Assembly (NCBI RefSeq): GCF_001484685.1
Contig: NZ_CP012200.1
Span: forward strand, 1,730,321 to 1,794,320
Reading direction: 5' to 3'
Source of the DNA: Thermococcus sp. 2319x1
GTDB taxonomy: Archaea > Methanobacteriota_B > Thermococci > Thermococcales > Thermococcaceae
DNA: 64,000 bases
In this document: piece after piece, positions 13,605 through 23,561 of the stretch
How positions within the stretch are numbered: the first letter of the stretch is position 1
Layout of the letters: each line of letters starts with the position of its first letter
Program-made: the position numbers and the translations under genes
Notes under the pieces: generated by a model
What the model was told of the DNA's origin: nothing
Seen by the model: only the letters and a program-made list of their open reading frames with translations
Database searches by the model: none

Positions 13605-13648
13605 AAAAATTTATTAATTTCCAGCCCTATGTGGATATTTGAGGGAAG

Positions 13649-14007
13649 GCTCATCTACTTATTGTGGCTGAAAGGTTTTTAAGTTTTCTTCATGACAGGG
13701 GTAATTACAAACGACATAATCGCCCGAAGATTATTCTTACCAGACCAAGAAGAGTGTTACAGGACAATCAGACAAATCCGCTGGCCAAACGGAGTAGCTA
13801 ATACTGCGGCAGTAAAAACATTCAGAAGAACGGACACACGCCGAAAAGAGCCCAGAAATACCACTGCAAAAACTGCAGAAAACACTTCAACGACCTAACA
13901 AGAACAATATTCGACCACCACTTATGATTCTCTGAAGGAGGGTTTGGGGATTATTAATTCTCATGGTGGTTCTCAGAACTAATATCAACCAGAATATCTA
14001 GATGAGC
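13649..14007 (+). mobile_element. MITE-like remnant 1 of an IS1595/ISXO2-type element
   Basis: The 359-bp element is bounded by imperfect inverted repeats: GCTCATCTA at the left and TAGATGAGC at the right, with further matched TATT, TGG and TGA blocks over about 24 bp. Inside are the transposase N-terminus (MTGVITNDIIARRLFLPDQE), a frameshifted zinc-ribbon region still readable as QKYHCKNCRKHFNDLTRTIF, and a few C-terminal codons. The DDE core is missing, so it cannot transpose by itself. No target duplication is visible (flanks GAGGGAAG and GTTATTTT). It has the same orientation as remnant 2 at 18.5 kb. Confidence 0.8.
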
Positions 14008-14250
14008 GTTATTTTTAATCAACACTCTCGCTGTGAAAACAGCCCTCTCATGCCTTCTTTTTACACATGATTAAAATTTCATGTTTCTAAGGAAAATTAT
14101 TGTGGTCAAAATACGTGTATTGTCTCCAAACCCAGATGTTACAAATTGCTCCAAATGAAGCCCTCAGAAAGCTCCTTTTCAAGCCACTTAAAAGAATCCT
14201 CATATTGTCCCCAATTCGAGATGTTATTCCTCGTTTGCATTCAAGTTACT
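14008..14250. other. non-coding stretch between remnant 1 and mcrC
   Basis: About 240 AT-rich bases lie downstream of mcrC. An open frame of 61 codons on the plus strand (14100-14285) runs into mcrC antisense and has no recognisable family or ribosome site. No tRNA, repeat array or clear terminator is seen. Confidence 0.4.
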
Positions 14251-15678
14251 TCATGGATTCAGAAGATCACAAAGTGATTTCTTAAGTGATTCCCCAAATT
14301 TCTTCTCAATTTCCTCAATTTTAAGCTCCTTTTTGAGAGTTTCCATGTCATACACCATAACTAAGAGCTTCCTGCCATCAAAAAACATAGCACTACCAAC
14401 TGTGGCTTCATTGTCTTCTGTCTTAATGCTTGAGTTGTACGTATAGCTCTTGGGGAATATGAGGACAGTAGGTACTCTACTAACATCATATTTTTCCTCA
14501 AGAATCTTGGCATAAACGTAAACCTGCCTCAGCAAATCTGGACTAATCTGAAGTTTGCCCTCTTTAATCCCTAGGGGCCTGTATTTGGCATCTAATACTG
14601 CAACAGGAATGCTGTTCTTACTAATAATAAAATCAGGATACTGTTTTCTTGTTATTATGTTTCCTCCTTTTTTCTCATCAAATAAATTCAACTCTCTCTG
14701 ATACTCGACTTCATACTCTTGGAGGCTTTTCTTGAGCACCCACAGTATGAACCGCTCAAACAATTCATTCATGTCAACGAAGAATCCTCCAACTTCTTCT
14801 CCAGAAATGCCACCAAAAGATTTCAAAATAATCTTAACAAGGTTAAAGGGTTTTCTAAATCGATCATTGAGACGAGTAAAATGCACTTTTCTCAAATCAG
14901 CCTCAGTTATCCGTCTAAAACTCACACCATCAAACACCATCATGAGCTCGCTCAGCAACTTCTTGTTGGCCAGCCACATTGTTTTTGAGAGCGAAAACCG
15001 TATCGTTGCATAGAATATCTGGTTAAGGAGGTTGTCCTCACTGAACTCATGAAGTTCAACACTGAATGTGTGTCTTTTGTGAGGCAACTTCTTTATCTGC
15101 CTGCTAACCAGAAGTTTCCCCCTTAGAAACTTCTCTTCCTGCTGTATCTCTTGATATTCACGGTAGTAACCTTTCTGCACTTCCTCCCACAGGCTTTTTG
15201 CGAAAAGGTGAATAAATATTTCGAGGATGCTATTAGGAATTTTTGAGTATCTAAGGTTGGCCAATTCTACATCTCGAATTTTCAGACCATAGGACACGTT
15301 AAGCATGCGAATAAATGCTAAAAGAGCTTCTTTCTGGCCTTGATAGTTTTGTTGATTTGTGCAGTTCTTATTTGAACCTTTTGACTTGAAGACTTTAGGA
15401 AGCACTTGGATGAGCAAGTTATCAATGGTCGCAAAACCGACATAATGCCGAGCCCTTACTGCATCGCTGTAGAGAAGTAGGAATCCCTTATTTTCATTTA
15501 ACTCCGTTTCTTCTGGACTGTCATTGGACATTGATTTGGGAGGATTTCTGGCAAATGCCCTATTCAATTTCCTTAAACTTTTTTCTATCTCATGCTCTGA
15601 TATCCCCAGCTTTTTTGAGAGACACCCATAAGAAACTTCGTCATGCTCGTAGAGGGTTAAAATTTTGAAGGAAGGCAT
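14251..15678 (-). CDS. mcrC: McrC-like PD-(D/E)XK restriction endonuclease subunit
   Basis: This 475-aa protein has an N-terminal domain (~1-300) and a C-terminal PD-(D/E)XK nuclease fold. The nuclease residues are visible as Asp349 in QYPDFIIS and Asp363/Lys365 in VAVLDAKYRPL. In McrBC systems McrC binds the McrB AAA+ ring, stimulates its GTPase and cleaves DNA that carries modified bases. It begins 14 bases after mcrB and has its own GGGGAG ribosome site. The frame is intact, so the system may be functional. Confidence 0.88.
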   Translation of the reverse strand: MPSFKILTLYEHDEVSYGCLSKKLGISEHEIEKSLRKLNRAFARNPPKSMSNDSPEETELNENKGFLLLYSDAVRARHYVGFATIDNLLIQVLPKVFKSKGSNKNCTNQQNYQGQKEALLAFIRMLNVSYGLKIRDVELANLRYSKIPNSILEIFIHLFAKSLWEEVQKGYYREYQEIQQEEKFLRGKLLVSRQIKKLPHKRHTFSVELHEFSEDNLLNQIFYATIRFSLSKTMWLANKKLLSELMMVFDGVSFRRITEADLRKVHFTRLNDRFRKPFNLVKIILKSFGGISGEEVGGFFVDMNELFERFILWVLKKSLQEYEVEYQRELNLFDEKKGGNIITRKQYPDFIISKNSIPVAVLDAKYRPLGIKEGKLQISPDLLRQVYVYAKILEEKYDVSRVPTVLIFPKSYTYNSSIKTEDNEATVGSAMFFDGRKLLVMVYDMETLKKELKIEEIEKKFGESLKKSLCDLLNP

Positions 15679-15692
15679 AGAGCTCCCCTAAA

Positions 15693-18077
15693 TCAGCTTT
15701 GTTCAGATTGTTGGAAACCATTTTCCAATTCCTGAGAGCTTTCAGGATTTCCTGAAGTGGTTTTCTCTGAAACTTCAGGTACTGAATTGATGATCTCCTG
15801 AAGAGCTTTAATAAAATCACTCTTCTCTGTTCCTAAGTCATATTTTTTGATTTTGTAAATTGAACTAGCCTCTATTTGCATGTTGGAAGCTGTGTTGAAT
15901 TTGCTTGCAGGGATGACCTCCTCGACAAATTCACTTCCAAGTAACCACCGCAGGGAGTCCCAGTCATTGTAGAAGTACTCCATGAGTAAAGGTATTATCT
16001 CATAGTACCAAGCAAACCAAAGATCCTCTAGTGTTTTGACTTTCATGAAATAGCTGTGGCCTATCCTGTGGTCCCTGTCTTTAATTGCCTCAATTTTAAT
16101 GTTCAGCTTTTCAAGTAGCTCTTTTAGGTTTATCCCTTCAATGGTCTTGTTCTCCAGTTCTTTTGGCTGTGGTTCAATCTCCAGAAATGCAAACCTTCTC
16201 CTTAGTGCGACGTCAAGTAATGCAATGCTTCTGTCTGCCGTGTTCATAGTCCCAATGATGTACAAGTTAGGTGGAACACCAAATGGTTCTCCTGAATATG
16301 GGAGGGTCACAATGATTTCGTTTTCCTCGCCTAAGCGTTTGTCATTTTCAAGGAGAGTTATCAGCTCGCCAAAGATTTTGCTAATATTACCACGATTAAT
16401 TTCATCAACGATAAGGTAGAATTTTGGAGCGTCTTTGTCTTTGAAGATACCTTCTCTTTTTTCTTTAGACAGCGATAGTAGTCTCCCCCATAGCTTCTTC
16501 TTGAGCTCGTGGTATCTTCCGTAATCTTTTACAGCATCTTGTCTTAGATATTGGAGAAGTTCGTCAAGTTCATCGGCAAAGTCTCCGAGTAATTCCTTAT
16601 GTCTTTTCAGAGTCTCAACAATTGCCTTAAGAGCAATCTTCTTGAAAATTCCATCCTCAACCACATAGACAACATTCTCTCCTTTGCTGACTGGTCTGAA
16701 GCCCTCAATGAACTCCTCATAACTGTAAGATTGGTGGAAGGTTACAAAGTCCCACCTATTTCCTGGTGTATTTTCTTTTGTTTCTAATCTCACATAATTT
16801 TGGGCGAGCCAAGTTTTTCCGGTTCCTGGTGGACCGTAGAGAATAATTTGACCTTTTCTTTCTAGGAGCTGAGTTATTTCTTCAGATAACTCGGGAGGAA
16901 TCTGTTCGTTATTGTTGGAATCGCTATTTAAGCCATTTAGAACACTTTCCAAGACTTTTCCAAATTTGCCCCAGTCAAGTTTTTCTAGAGTGTATGGAAT
17001 TGAAGGAAGCTCTTCCACAGTAACACCGTCGGAATTGTACCAAATAAACTCAACTCTCCTCGAGTGATTGTAATCCGTGCCTTCAATCGGGGACTCTTCG
17101 AGATATTTGTATTTTCCCGTAACTTTACAGATGGCAACTACCCTGTTAATTCCCTTCTTTAGTACAACAATATCCCCGATATTCATGTTGTAAAAATTGA
17201 TTAGCATAGTTGCAACAGGATTAGCTCCTTTAGAGGTATATTGATAAATCTCCCGAAGCTTTTGCCCCAATGCTTCTCTAAGGCCTTTTTGAGAGTTAAT
17301 ATCTTTTGCAATCATGGAAATGTCTCCGACTTTTCCCCATCCAATAAATATCCTTTTTTCATTGTAAAATGCTTCTAAAAATTTGCCTTCCTCACCGGGA
17401 TACATCTGCCAGACCTTAACTTTGTCAAAGAAGTTGAACATCTGGTCAATTTCAGCATTAATTGGAAATACATTTTCCGAGAGTTTACCCGCGATTTTTA
17501 GATATTCTTTTTTCAGTTCTTCAAAGGTCTCTTTGAATTCATTGTAATTGTGTTTATCGAATGAATAGTATCCCTCTAGAAACCTTCTGGAGCATGCGTT
17601 CATTATTGGGCAAGTTTCTATGTGCAACTTCCCATACAGCTCACCAAAGATGTTGAATAAGTTACCTTTTAGCCCAGAGAAATTCTCAGCTTGAGGATAA
17701 TGCTTTTTAAGAAGTTCATAAACTTCATCCACCCATTCTTCCCTAAATTCGTTTGAATTTTTTACATCAACAACTACTTCAGCAAGCTTTTGGATATCCG
17801 CTTTTGGAGCCCCACTTAGAAAGCTCTTGAGAAGCCAAATATTTCCAGCCCATATCTTCTTATTAAACAGTTCTTTGAGAAGCTTTGGCATATCGCCCTC
17901 TTTGTTTTCGAGCTTTCTAACAATTTCAGTAATGTCTTCTATGTTTCTCAACCATCCAGAATTACCTGTCAAGTCAAAATACGACTCATCTCTCTTTCCA
18001 ACAAATTCAACAAAGTTCTTCCAAAGGATTAATCTCTCATGTAGTTCTTTACGCTTACCCTCAATTAACCTTGACAT
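15693..18077 (-). CDS. mcrB: McrB-like AAA+ motor with N-terminal EVE/PUA-like reader domain
   Basis: The 794-aa protein has three parts. Residues ~1-210 are helical, with a segment around 150-190 (HIETCPIMNACSRRFLEGYY). Residues ~220-365 look like an EVE/PUA-like fold that reads modified DNA bases (IFIGWGKVGDIS, MNIGDIVVLKKGINRVVAICKVTGKYKY). From ~390 comes the McrB-type AAA+ domain with Walker A GPPGTGKT (415-422), Walker B LIVDEINRGNISKIFGE and the McrB signature MNTADRSIALLDVALRRRF. It recognises modified DNA and, with McrC, translocates and cuts it. GAGGTG precedes the ATG, which overlaps the upstream gene by 13 bases. The domain fold assignment for the middle region is from pattern, not alignment. 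Confidence 0.88.
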   Translation of the reverse strand: MSRLIEGKRKELHERLILWKNFVEFVGKRDESYFDLTGNSGWLRNIEDITEIVRKLENKEGDMPKLLKELFNKKIWAGNIWLLKSFLSGAPKADIQKLAEVVVDVKNSNEFREEWVDEVYELLKKHYPQAENFSGLKGNLFNIFGELYGKLHIETCPIMNACSRRFLEGYYSFDKHNYNEFKETFEELKKEYLKIAGKLSENVFPINAEIDQMFNFFDKVKVWQMYPGEEGKFLEAFYNEKRIFIGWGKVGDISMIAKDINSQKGLREALGQKLREIYQYTSKGANPVATMLINFYNMNIGDIVVLKKGINRVVAICKVTGKYKYLEESPIEGTDYNHSRRVEFIWYNSDGVTVEELPSIPYTLEKLDWGKFGKVLESVLNGLNSDSNNNEQIPPELSEEITQLLERKGQIILYGPPGTGKTWLAQNYVRLETKENTPGNRWDFVTFHQSYSYEEFIEGFRPVSKGENVVYVVEDGIFKKIALKAIVETLKRHKELLGDFADELDELLQYLRQDAVKDYGRYHELKKKLWGRLLSLSKEKREGIFKDKDAPKFYLIVDEINRGNISKIFGELITLLENDKRLGEENEIIVTLPYSGEPFGVPPNLYIIGTMNTADRSIALLDVALRRRFAFLEIEPQPKELENKTIEGINLKELLEKLNIKIEAIKDRDHRIGHSYFMKVKTLEDLWFAWYYEIIPLLMEYFYNDWDSLRWLLGSEFVEEVIPASKFNTASNMQIEASSIYKIKKYDLGTEKSDFIKALQEIINSVPEVSEKTTSGNPESSQELENGFQQSEQS

Positions 18078-18511
18078 CCTAACACCTCAATTTTGTTGCT
18101 AACTTTGTCAAGTATTCTTTTTACACTTTTCCAGTAAATTAAATCTTTTTCAGTTTTAATTTTTTCTTCATTTACCAGATATGCCCCTTTCGGAGTCTGG
18201 ACAATTAGCTTTTGTTCCAAAAGCTCTTCAAGAGTGTCGTCTAAAGATTTCCACGGTTTTATGATATTGAAGAACATTTCTCGATCCACATAGTAGAGAA
18301 CTGCCAAGAATTCTTCAAGGTCATTTTTAGTAACTCCTCTGCTCTTCCCTCTAACATGCTGGAGGTAGTAAATAACATTCAGGAGCAGAAACCTTCTTCT
18401 CCCAGCCCTAAGCCAGTCCTCCCAATGTTCAAGGTGCTCCTCAGGATGCTCTACACACTGTCTAATGTACTCAGAGATTTCTTTTGTTCTCTTGTTAGAA
18501 TCCTCATTCAT
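18065..18511 (-). CDS. unrecognised 148-aa protein, first gene of the mcr operon
   Basis: I do not recognise this family. The protein is mostly helical, without membrane segments or cysteine motifs. Its N-terminal third is rich in His, Glu and Trp (HPEEHLEHWEDWLRAGRRRF), and residues ~60-120 could form a winged-helix-like unit (TLEELLEQKLIVQTPKGAYLV). It overlaps mcrB by 13 bases, so it is almost certainly cotranslated with the restriction genes, and may be a specificity, regulatory or immunity component. AAGGGTG lies six bases before the ATG; the frame is open three codons further at GTG. The upstream inverted repeat of MITE remnant 2 ends only 22 bases away. Confidence 0.65.
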   Translation of the reverse strand: MNEDSNKRTKEISEYIRQCVEHPEEHLEHWEDWLRAGRRRFLLLNVIYYLQHVRGKSRGVTKNDLEEFLAVLYYVDREMFFNIIKPWKSLDDTLEELLEQKLIVQTPKGAYLVNEEKIKTEKDLIYWKSVKRILDKVSNKIEVLGCQG

Positions 18512-18533
18512 AAATAACACCCTTATCCTTTTG

Positions 18534-18990
18534 GCTCATCTACTTATTGTGGCTGAAAGGTTTTAAGTTTTCTTCCCGAGTATTAGATCATGACAGGGGT
18601 AATTACAAACGACATAATCGCCCGAAGATTATTCTTACCAGACCCAGAAGAGTGCTACAGAACAATCAGACAAATCCGCTGGCCAAACGGAGTAGCTTGA
18701 TTGCGGGAGAACTGAAGGTTTTTACTGACGAGTATTCCATTTATGATTCTCTGAGGGAGGGTTTGGGGGTTATTAATTCTCATGAGCGGGTTAATCATTC
18801 TGGGAGAGAGTTTGCACGTTGTGAGCATGTTAACAGTTGTGAGAACAGGCATGGTTTTCTGAGGGCTTATCCGAGGAAGTATCGTGTGCCAGCTTGAGTT
18901 GCAGGGTTATTTGGACTTTCTGGCGTTGCTTTTGAATAACAGGTGGGGGTGGTTCCCAGAACTAATATCAACCAGAATATCTAGATGAGC
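18534..18990 (+). mobile_element. MITE-like remnant 2 of the same IS1595/ISXO2-type element
   Basis: This 457-bp copy has the same ends as remnant 1 (GCTCATCTA and TAGATGAGC) and the same orientation. It keeps the transposase N-terminus (MTGVITNDIIARRLFLPDPE) and, after an internal deletion near 18697, the C-terminal part (DEYSIYDSLREGLGVINSHE, then VNSCENRHGFLRAYPRKYR), typical of ISXO2-like DDE transposases. The zinc ribbon and most of the catalytic core are gone. No target duplication is seen (TCCTTTTG versus GTTTGGGA). Confidence 0.82.
18557..18572 (-). promoter_or_regulatory. outward promoter candidate inside MITE remnant 2 driving the mcr operon
   Basis: On the minus strand the purine-rich GAAGAAAA precedes ACTTAAAACC, a plausible BRE/TATA pair. 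A start about 25 bases downstream would lie at the edge of the element, roughly 30 bases before the 148-aa gene's ATG. With only 22 bases between the element and that gene, the promoter must lie at least partly in the remnant. Motif match is moderate. Confidence 0.4.
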
Positions 18991-19240
18991 GTTTGGGAAT
19001 TTTGCATTTATCAACTTAAAACAGAAAGTACAGCCTCGGGGGGAGCGGGAAAATCATACGGAAACGTAACCGTCAAAGATTGCTTCATCTACCCAAATTC
19101 CAATTTTGGAAAATTGTAGCGAAGGAACTAAAAGCCGGAGGGGAAAATGTCGTAATGCTTGAATTCCCTACAAAATGCAACGGGCAATTTTTAGCGGTGT
19201 GGGTTGAAGAAGTAAACATCACATACTCCCCTTTCTCCTC
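18991..19240 (+). pseudogene. decayed 3' fragment of a secreted-type protein gene
   Basis: An open frame begins exactly at the right end of MITE remnant 2 and reads TESTASGGAGKSYGNVTVKD, then FIYPNSNFGK, before a TAG. One base shift continues it as IVAKELKAGGENVVML and EFPTKCNGQFLAVWVEEVNI. The composition (Ser/Thr/Gly, beta-strand alternation) suggests an extracellular domain. The 5' part is absent, so the fragment was probably cut off by the element or a later deletion. I do not recognise the family. Confidence 0.45.
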
Positions 19241-19293
19241 GAAAGGCAGTGCAAAAAATTGCTCTCGACAATATAGAATGCCCTTAACAAAAC

Positions 19294-19303
19294 TTTAATA
19301 TAT
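19294..19303 (+). promoter_or_regulatory. TATA box of the GH13 lipoprotein gene
   Basis: TTTAATATAT lies 33 bases upstream of the ATG at 19336. A start about 25 bases downstream falls within the adjacent TGM-like site and gives a leader of roughly 12 bases. Confidence 0.55.
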
Positions 19304-21539: not shown

Positions 21540-21607
21540 CCTCCTGCACTTATTTTTGTTGCAGTCCTTGACTAATTATCATTAACGAGTTCTTGCAGTG
21601 CAGGAGG
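21540..21607 (-). repeat. perfect 11-bp inverted repeat at the tnpB 3' end, candidate omega-RNA/terminator hairpin
   Basis: CCTCCTGCACT (21540-21550) and AGTGCAGGAGG (21597-21607) are perfect inverted repeats 46 bases apart; one arm abuts the tnpB stop codon and the other lies in its last codons. In TnpB elements the guide (omega/reRNA) scaffold overlaps the tnpB 3' end and terminates at the right end of the element. The hairpin could be part of that RNA or a transcription terminator between the converging genes. Confidence 0.5.
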
Positions 21608-22863
21608 TTGGCCTCAACCACCAGCATCACCGGACTCACCGAGCCCTCCGCCGATGGCTCACAGGCCTTCGGGCTGAACGGAAACAGCCCCAACAAGTTC
21701 AAGACCGCAACAAAATCCCTGTCCATTGAAAAACCGCAAACCGGACACTCGAAAACCCTCCGACGCAGAGCGTCGTCACCGGGTTTAACCCTAAACGCAC
21801 CACAATGCGGACAAACCTGAGAAGAATAAGCAGGATTGACAAAAACCACAGAAACACCATACTCAACCGCCTTCTCAAAGACAAAACGCTGGAAACCATT
21901 CATTCCAATGTTGTGAAGCGTATCCCTCAACCTCGCCTCGCTCTTTCTTCTTTTCCTCACAATCCTTTGATTAAAATTCTTCGGAACGGCTTCAAGGACG
22001 AGAGTAGCGTTCAACTTCCCAGCGAGATCAGCAAGCCTCATCGCCAACTTCCTTTGCAAGTCAACCCTCCTGTTCATCTTCCTCCTACCGAATTTTTTGA
22101 GGAGGTTTCTACCACGCTTTGAGGGTAGTTTCCTCTTCCAACCGACCGAGTGAGTCTTTTGAACCTGCTTCCTCACGTCAGAATAAAACCTCGTCATTCT
22201 GCCCAAATCCGTCTTAACCTGAATTAAAAACTCGCGAGTGCCAAAAGAGACATTATCGACGTTATAATCCACGCTAAGGAATCTTTCGGTTGGTTCAAGC
22301 TCGGTGAACTCTTTCTCAAAGATGAAGTATGCAAGAACTTTCCGCTCCTCTTCAACGACGCGGAGTTTCACGCCAGCCTTGACCTTCCAGCCCTCGTCAA
22401 GATACCTGAAGAAGAGTTTGTGCGGTTTCAGCGGGAGTTTTATCCTACCCCTTTTCGTCGTGAAGCCTATGATGAGGATTTTTCTCCCATTTTTCAGGAC
22501 GTTGAACCGTGGAAACCTCTTGTAATCCCACAGAACGTCGTCCAGCCAGAGGGAGACGCGTTTGATGACGGGTTTCCCGGTTTTGGCCTTTCCCTTCTTC
22601 TTCAGTTCGAAGAAGCTCTTGGCTCTCGTCACTGCGTCTTGGCAAACCGTGTAATAATAGTGGGTTGGAAGATTGTGCTCCTCCTTGAGTTTTTTGTAGA
22701 AGATTTTCCTAAGTTTTAGATGGCTCTTCACTTTGTTTTCAACTGCATAGTTTGTCAGAAAGGTTAATATTTCCGAGTATTCGTCATAAATCTCTTTTAT
22801 CGCCTCGAACTTCTTTCCCGTGAGTGGGAGGCTTTCGAGGATGACTGTTCGGGTTAGTTTCAC
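21550..22863 (-). CDS. tnpB: TnpB, RNA-guided nuclease of an IS607 element
   Basis: This 437-aa protein has all TnpB hallmarks. The RuvC-like residues are Asp199 (SVDYNVDN), Glu291 (LVLEAVPKNF) and an Asp in MDRDFVAVLN (381/383). The zinc ribbon uses Cys351, Cys354, Cys373 and Cys376. TnpB uses an RNA from the element's end to cut DNA at the vacated donor site, which favours retention of the element. The start overlaps the tnpA stop (ATGA). The ~45-residue C-terminal extension after the third RuvC motif is longer than in some relatives. All catalytic residues are present, so it may be active. Confidence 0.9.
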   Translation of the reverse strand: MKLTRTVILESLPLTGKKFEAIKEIYDEYSEILTFLTNYAVENKVKSHLKLRKIFYKKLKEEHNLPTHYYYTVCQDAVTRAKSFFELKKKGKAKTGKPVIKRVSLWLDDVLWDYKRFPRFNVLKNGRKILIIGFTTKRGRIKLPLKPHKLFFRYLDEGWKVKAGVKLRVVEEERKVLAYFIFEKEFTELEPTERFLSVDYNVDNVSFGTREFLIQVKTDLGRMTRFYSDVRKQVQKTHSVGWKRKLPSKRGRNLLKKFGRRKMNRRVDLQRKLAMRLADLAGKLNATLVLEAVPKNFNQRIVRKRRKSEARLRDTLHNIGMNGFQRFVFEKAVEYGVSVVFVNPAYSSQVCPHCGAFRVKPGDDALRRRVFECPVCGFSMDRDFVAVLNLLGLFPFSPKACEPSAEGSVSPVMLVVEANLLHCKNSLMIISQGLQQK

Positions 22864-23480
22864 TCGTTCTCAACCTCCGCGAGGAGTTTTTTAAATTCTT
22901 GAACGAACCTTTTGTTCTTGTGGCTCCTTAGCCCATAAAGTCTCCCGGCAAAGCTGGTTATTATTGCGATTAAGTCTTCAACGAGTTCTTCTTTTGGTGT
23001 CTTGTCTTCTTTGAAGACTGTTTCAATCCTCACGTTGTATGCTGAGAAGAGTTCTTCCAGATATTTGAAGCCGAATCGTGTAAGCCTATCTGGATAAGTG
23101 ACGATAAGAACGTCATACTCGCTGTTTCTTGCGAGAGTGATGAGTTTTCTTAGGCCCTTTCTGTTTTCGTTCAGTCCAGAGGCTATTTCTTTCACCTCGT
23201 CCACGATTTGGTAGCCTTTGCTGATGGCGTATTGTTCGAGGGTTTTGAGTTGTGTTCCGAGGTCTTCTTTTTGGTCTCTTCCTGAAACTCTTGCGTAGAG
23301 GACTGCCCTCGTTGTTTCGTTCTTTTTACCCAGTAGTCGCTGGACTTCCTCCTCGGGAATTCTGAAGTCTCGGCCTATTTTGATGGCTCTGATTTTTCCA
23401 GCGTGAATCCAGCGAATTATGGTGACTTTGTTGTAGTTAAGGAGTTCTGCAACCTCAGAGGGTTTGTAAAATTTTGGCAT
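22860..23480 (-). CDS. tnpA: IS607-family serine recombinase TnpA
   Basis: The 206-aa protein begins with a MerR-like HTH (YKPSEVAELLNYNKVTIIRWI), followed by a small serine-recombinase domain with the catalytic Ser66 in LYARVSGRDQ and the conserved TYPDRLTRFGF. It catalyses excision and insertion of the element by a serine-recombinase mechanism. GGTG lies six bases before the ATG; the frame is open three codons further upstream. Confidence 0.9.
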   Translation of the reverse strand: MPKFYKPSEVAELLNYNKVTIIRWIHAGKIRAIKIGRDFRIPEEEVQRLLGKKNETTRAVLYARVSGRDQKEDLGTQLKTLEQYAISKGYQIVDEVKEIASGLNENRKGLRKLITLARNSEYDVLIVTYPDRLTRFGFKYLEELFSAYNVRIETVFKEDKTPKEELVEDLIAIITSFAGRLYGLRSHKNKRFVQEFKKLLAEVENE

Positions 23481-23561
23481 TGATAACACCTAAGTCAATG
23501 TATGCAACGAAAATATTTAAAACTTACGCAAAATACCAACTAGAGAACAGCCTTTTTATTT

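What the first reader, a model, noticed from the sequence alone, without database searches (positions are those of the whole stretch)
13649..18990. McrBC-type defence island bracketed by two same-orientation MITE-like remnants
Two internally deleted copies of the same IS1595/ISXO2-like element, both keeping their terminal repeats, flank exactly the three mcr genes (14251-18511). The interior is 4.5 kb. This is the structure of a composite transposon or of recombination between two dispersed copies, and it suggests the restriction system was acquired or can be lost as one unit.
Basis: partly seen in the sequence, partly recalled or inferred. Interest (0 to 1): 0.65.

Follow-up and report, generated by a model that had tools for sequence, protein, structure and literature searches.

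The report
MITE-bounded, truncated archaeal McrBC cassette
A DNA-cutting defence operon in a Thermococcus-type archaeon sits exactly between two dead transposon remnants at a spot where its close relatives have neither; it probably arrived as one package, lost its first gene at the package edge, and may now be switched on by the remnant itself.

Summary
Two internally deleted IS1595-type copies, 13648-14008 and 18533-18991, same orientation, both inverted repeats kept, sit at the two junctions of a 4.5-kb insert carrying gene1 (winged-helix-like), mcrB and mcrC. None of ten assembled homologous sites in the genus has either remnant or mcr genes; the two nearest (about 91% identical) show the uninterrupted sequence, and McrB of this type is absent from all 12 other genomes of the genus. 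So the bracketed block came as one unit. A working composite transposon is not shown: no intact IS1595 transposase was found in the genome, all full-length copies examined are broken, and the target duplication is imperfect (outer flanks 6/8; each copy's own flanks 2/8 and 1/8). Best reading: a MITE-bounded (pseudo-compound-like) cassette gained by horizontal transfer, now probably unable to transpose unless a transposase is supplied. New member of a known kind.

The parts
13648..14008 (+). MITE copy 1: internally deleted IS1595-type element, 361 bp, both TIRs; 14-bp deletion near the left end, two large internal deletions
   Evidence: sub-lineage with the 14-bp deletion also seen in G082
18533..18991 (+). 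MITE copy 2: internally deleted IS1595-type element, 459 bp, both TIRs; one main internal deletion whose boundaries are shared with a G082 copy
18065..18511 (-). gene1, 148 aa, conserved HPEHWEDWLRAGRRRFLLLN motif; low-confidence winged-helix-like fold; first gene of the truncated operon
15693..18077 (-). mcrB-like AAA+ GTPase, 794 aa, Walker A GPPGTGKTW and MNTADRS motif
   Evidence: (TgMcrB 6ut3 E 4.5e-122)
14251..15678 (-). mcrC-like nuclease, 475 aa, PDF..DAKY PD-(D/E)xK motif readable
   Evidence: PF10117 E 2.7e-61; TgMcrC 6ut5 E 1.4e-116
18561..18572 (-). promoter-like BRE/TATA box GAAAACTTAAAA inside copy 2, facing the operon, ending 49 nt before the gene1 ATG
   Evidence: motif learned from 107 upstream regions scores 9.85 here (median upstream best 8.6); 1.9% of random 90-bp stretches reach it
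14036..14230 (.). conserved non-coding element downstream of mcrC, part of the cargo; 86-87% identical to the sequence next to mcrC in G024
18992..19298 (+). remains of a host gene of roughly 190 aa that is uninterrupted in G002/G005; 5' end lost at the insertion plus an internal deletion of about 219 bp
13640..13647 (.). left outer flank TGAGGGAA (candidate target-site duplication)
   Evidence: matches right outer flank 6/8
18992..18999 (.). right outer flank TTTGGGAA (candidate target-site duplication)
   Evidence: identical to the uninterrupted site

Best explanation
A horizontally acquired McrBC cassette whose two edges are non-autonomous IS1595-type MITEs in direct orientation (a pseudo-compound-like unit). 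Two different MITE sub-types had come to lie on either side of gene1-mcrB-mcrC, one at or near the 3' end of the upstream metallo-beta-lactamase gene and one downstream of mcrC (inferred). The block between them then entered this chromosome as one unit, either by transposition with a transposase supplied in trans, or as a circle carrying one MITE that recombined with a MITE already resident in the radical-SAM/amylase intergenic region; a short host stretch (roughly 60-70 bp) was lost there. The result is a three-gene operon without its MBL gene, probably transcribed from the promoter box in the left end of copy 2 (inferred). It should still be losable by recombination between the two MITEs, leaving one chimeric MITE (inferred), but it should not transpose on its own today. 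Shown: remnants at both junctions, uninterrupted site in relatives, foreign cargo, missing MBL gene, no intact IS1595 transposase found. Inferred: mechanism of entry, promoter use, possible excision.
For: Synteny is continuous on both sides in G002 and G005 but breaks exactly at the outer ends of the two MITEs (right: host sequence resumes at 18992; left: BLAST match to 13629, looser similarity to 13647). No McrB of this type in the 12 other genus genomes; nearest McrC are from two other genera. The two MITEs are not a local duplication: different left-end indels and different internal deletions, each type with a counterpart in G082. Outer flanks agree 6/8 (8/8 if a 2-nt insertion is allowed), own flanks 2/8 and 1/8; 8-bp duplications are seen at other copies of the element (8/8, 7/8, 7/8). 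Ten other Thermococcaceae gene1 loci with upstream sequence, and the Geoglobus locus, have the MBL gene upstream of gene1. Promoter box. Literature precedents: IS1595-family pseudo-compound transposon Tn7560 (PMC12561309) and MITE-flanked integrons (PMC10969869).
Against: The outer duplication is imperfect, and similar 7-bp TTTGGGA strings already stand about 70 bp apart in the uninterrupted site, so the 6/8 match may be coincidence plus a local deletion; among mismatched flank pairs of this element 4.6% reach 6/8. No other genome shows the same unit or a MITE beside mcr genes. No intact IS1595 transposase in the genome. Promoter use and excision are untested. One genome per species is held, so strain variation is unseen.
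Confidence: 0.6

Rival explanations
1. Recombination integration: a plasmid or circular DNA carrying the operon and one MITE recombined with a resident chromosomal MITE; no transposition of the block occurred.
For: Expected pattern is outer flanks alike and inner flanks alike: observed 6/8 and 5/8, against 2/8 and 1/8 within each copy; chance of 11 or more of 16 with random AT-rich 8-mers about 0.001. The copies look mosaic, with copy 1 sharing features with both G082 copies and copy 3.
Against: The inner flanks are T-rich and 5/8 is weak (10% of mismatched pairs reach it). No resident single MITE is seen at the site in any relative. No plasmid hit for gene1 or the element.
Confidence: 0.3
2. 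Sequential independent events: the operon came in by another route (for example illegitimate recombination) and two MITEs later inserted near its two ends.
For: MITEs of this family are dispersed and each copy is a different deletion derivative.
Against: Both insertions would have to fall on the two foreign/host junctions; neither copy has its own target duplication (2/8, 1/8); no relative has mcr without MITEs at the site.
Confidence: 0.12
3. Ancestral presence: the mcr operon was at this site in the common ancestor and was lost from the relatives.
For: The region is variable (amylase, the small gene and an IS differ among relatives).
Against: G002 and G005 keep an uninterrupted gene across the site; McrC groups with other genera.
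Confidence: 0.04

Closest known systems
Tn7560, pseudo-compound transposon of ISApl4 (IS1595 family), PMC12561309
   Same: Two same-orientation IS1595-family elements around a several-kb cargo; 8-bp target duplications at single copies
   Different: ISApl4 is active with an intact transposase and carries resistance genes in a bacterium; here the ends are dead MITEs and the cargo is a restriction operon in an archaeon
MITE-flanked class 1 integrons of Acinetobacter (reviewed in PMC10969869)
   Same: Non-autonomous MITEs at both ends of a cassette, thought to be moved in trans
   Different: Those MITEs are identical to each other and recur around several integrons; here the two MITEs are different sub-types and the unit was seen once
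Thermococcus gammatolerans McrBC (PDB 6ut3-6ut8; PMC7680126)
   Same: McrB AAA+ part and whole McrC clearly homologous
   Different: The N-terminal part of McrB was not matched to a solved structure; here gene1 precedes mcrB
MBL-gene1-McrB-McrC operons of Thermococcaceae and Geoglobus (this work, L117, L125, L177)
   Same: gene1-mcrB-mcrC order and sequence
   Different: The window lacks the MBL gene; a MITE stands in its place

Membership tests
IS1595-family MITE | Terminal inverted repeats shared with an IS1595 element | tested here: met
   GGCTCATCTA / TAGATGAGCG ends shared with 938-968 bp copies
IS1595-family MITE | Zn ribbon plus ISXO2-like DDE transposase in the parent element | tested here: met
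   PF12760 E 1.5e-10 and PF12762 E 6e-9 on the two halves of the G082 copy, both over the Pfam cut-off
IS1595-family MITE | 8-bp target duplication | tested here: inconclusive
   8/8, 7/8, 7/8 at L094, L093, L114; 2/8 and 1/8 at the two window copies
Composite / pseudo-compound transposon | Two copies of one element family flanking cargo, direct orientation | tested here: met
Composite / pseudo-compound transposon | Target duplication around the whole unit | tested here: inconclusive
   TGAGGGAA / TTTGGGAA, 6 of 8; a short host stretch lost at the site
Composite / pseudo-compound transposon | Site without the unit in relatives | tested here: met
   G002, G005
Composite / pseudo-compound transposon | Functional transposase from one of the ends | tested here: not met
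   Both ends deleted; third copy has stops; no PF12762 hit in the genome; the only other Zn-ribbon hit has a different DDE protein
Composite / pseudo-compound transposon | Excision or circle formation | not testable with these tools
   needs PCR or reads
McrBC type IV restriction | McrB AAA+ GTPase with MNTADRS motif and McrC with PD-(D/E)xK nuclease | tested here: met
   motifs read from the translation
McrBC type IV restriction | N-terminal modified-base reader in McrB | tested here: inconclusive
   residues 221-345 hit PADLOC PDC-S02 models; no PDB match
McrBC type IV restriction | Cleaves modified DNA | not testable with these tools
   experiment needed
Four-gene MBL-gene1-McrB-McrC operon | MBL/beta-CASP gene upstream of gene1 | tested here: not met
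   absent at the locus; own genome holds only a 40-residue fragment at G000:C1:667858-667977 and a distant 480-aa homologue

The most novel reading that the evidence does not exclude
MBL(beta-CASP)-gene1-McrB-McrC is an undescribed type IV restriction variant of hyperthermophilic archaea, and here a pair of dead MITEs has cut out, carried and given a promoter to its gene1-McrBC part, so that a defence operon became a losable, MITE-expressed unit.
Probability: 0.3. Interest if true: 0.6.

Novelty: new member of a known kind. Interest (0 to 1): 0.42.

Why it matters
It gives a concrete case, with an uninterrupted site for comparison, of dead transposon remnants bounding a transferred archaeal defence operon. 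It makes two questions testable: whether MITEs move or delete defence genes in Thermococcales, and whether a MITE end can supply the promoter. It also points to a conserved MBL-gene1 module that travels with two different McrBC-like nuclease sets.

Tried and rejected
PADLOC search of gene1 and McrC: no hit. Rfam scan of the locus: nothing real. Folding the 190-bp element downstream of mcrC: little covariation on either strand, so no RNA claim. Viral contigs with its core motif: eight exact 17-base matches, not examined and taken as probable chance. Plasmid collection for gene1 and for the IS: none. Attempt to derive the two window copies as reciprocal recombinants of G082-like parents: the copies are mosaics and no single pair of parents fits. 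Gene1 fold search: only weak winged-helix hits, no E under 0.001. Papers joining McrBC with beta-CASP: none in the held library.

Full report
Observation. The two remnants are real. Copy 1 spans 13648-14008 and copy 2 spans 18533-18991, same orientation, both with complete terminal repeats GGCTCATCTA...TAGATGAGCG. They derive from a 938-968 bp element whose better-preserved copies in genome G082 match the IS1595 Zn ribbon and the ISXO2-like DDE domain. Between them lie McrC (14251-15678), McrB (15693-18077) and a 148-aa gene1 (18065-18511), all on the minus strand. Both mcr proteins are uninterrupted and keep their motifs; they are clear relatives of T. gammatolerans McrBC.

Site in relatives. 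I fetched the homologous site from ten genomes of the same genus. In G005 and G002, which are about 91-92% identical, the radical-SAM gene is followed by a roughly 190-aa gene and then the amylase (largely deleted in G005), with no MITE and no mcr gene. In the window the match stops just before copy 1 (BLAST to 13629, visible similarity to 13647) and resumes exactly after copy 2 at 18992; the 5' end of the small gene is missing. The other eight sites also lack MITE and mcr as far as assembled; several lack the small gene or the amylase, and G004 carries a different transposon there. McrB of this type is absent from the other 12 genus genomes but patchy in the family, and the window McrC groups with G028 and G024, two other genera. 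The block is therefore foreign and the MITEs mark its two junctions.

How the unit formed. The element makes 8-bp target duplications: 8/8 at L094, 7/8 at L093 and L114. In the window, copy 1's own flanks agree 2/8 and copy 2's 1/8, while the outer flanks (TGAGGGAA / TTTGGGAA) agree 6/8 and the inner flanks 5/8. This is what one expects if the unit moved as one piece, or if a MITE-bearing circle recombined with a resident MITE. It is not proof: 4.6% of mismatched flank pairs reach 6/8 and 10% reach 5/8, and the uninterrupted site itself holds two TTTGGGA strings about 70 bp apart. The two copies are distinct sub-types, with different left-end indels and different internal deletions, and each has a counterpart in G082, so neither is a local duplicate of the other. 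All full-length copies I examined (G000, G082, G023) carry stops or frameshifts. Lesions are shared: copies 1 and 3 share a 4-bp deletion, copies 2 and 3 share changes near the 3' end (also found in two G082 copies), and copy 3 shares a 5-bp lesion with G082 copies. The copies therefore probably spread while already defective, needing a transposase in trans. No intact IS1595 transposase was found in this genome; the one other Zn-ribbon hit belongs to a 294-aa DDE-type protein that I judge by eye to be of another family.

The operon is truncated. Gene1 has 54-77% identical homologues in eleven other Thermococcaceae genomes. In ten of them upstream sequence is available and shows an MBL-fold protein of roughly 510-530 aa with an RMMBL domain upstream of gene1: directly upstream in most, with one small gene between in G004 and three in G026, split in two frames in G007, and cut by the contig end in G010 and G076; in G008 the contig starts at gene1. 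A Geoglobus MAG has the same order MBL-gene1-McrB-McrC (its MBL split in two frames). In the window the MBL gene is missing: copy 2 begins 21 bp before the gene1 start codon. The genome has only a 40-residue MBL fragment elsewhere and a distant homologue. In G004, G007, G008 and G010 gene1 goes instead with a DUF2357-PDDEXK_7 protein and a McrB-like AAA protein, so the module is exchangeable. AlphaFold gives gene1 a mean pLDDT of 82, and Foldseek returns winged-helix proteins without significance; I call it winged-helix-like only. The beta-CASP label rests on my reading of the motifs (HAHLDHVGN, HASGH, IPVHTE) together with the Pfam MBL and RMMBL hits.

Promoter. A motif learned without labels, but started from a TATA-like seed, from 107 upstream regions came out as GAAAACTTTAAA, the expected archaeal BRE/TATA type. 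The left end of copy 2 has GAAAACTTAAAA facing the operon, 49 nt before the ATG, with score 9.85; the median best score of upstream regions is 8.6 and 1.9% of random 90-bp stretches reach 9.85. The same box is in the left end of most other copies. Promoter use is inferred, not shown. MITE-borne promoters are known in bacteria (PMC10969869).

Comparison. The arrangement works like a pseudo-compound transposon such as Tn7560 (PMC12561309) or MITE-flanked integrons (PMC10969869). It fails one defining feature of an active composite transposon, a functional transposase from its ends, and the duplication around the unit is inconclusive. I therefore file it as a MITE-bounded cassette, a new member of a known kind, and do not claim present mobility.

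Noticed in passing
window 14036-14230: Conserved non-coding element of about 190 bp downstream of mcrC, 73-90% identical in G024, G089, G086 and G017; its core pattern occurs six times in 5 of 94 family genomes. Three copies share the same flanking 108- and 141-aa genes, and neighbours include McrBC, an SNF2-type helicase and an RM-like gene. Little covariation; unexplained.
   Followed up: partly
L155, L156, L159, L160: gene1 (with the MBL gene in three of the four) together with a DUF2357-PDDEXK_7 protein and a McrB-like AAA protein (PDC-M26A hit in G007) instead of McrBC: a module shared by two nuclease sets.
   Followed up: partly
G000:C1:667858-667977 (L178 4871-4978): Fragment of the MBL gene, with a 16-residue gene1-like match nearby on the other strand: possible decayed second locus.
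   Followed up: no
window 21550-23489: TnpB-like and serine-recombinase-like gene pair (IS607-like by eye) that falls in a gap of the alignment to G002 and G005.
   Followed up: no
L053 9520-10440: A different transposon (IS982-like by eye) sits just upstream of the same small host gene in G004: the intergenic region takes insertions repeatedly.
   Followed up: no
G000:C1:1835169-1836105: Third, full-length broken copy lies 35 nt from the start of a 414-aa ORF on one side and 43 nt from a 328-aa ORF on the other, both facing outward.
   Followed up: no
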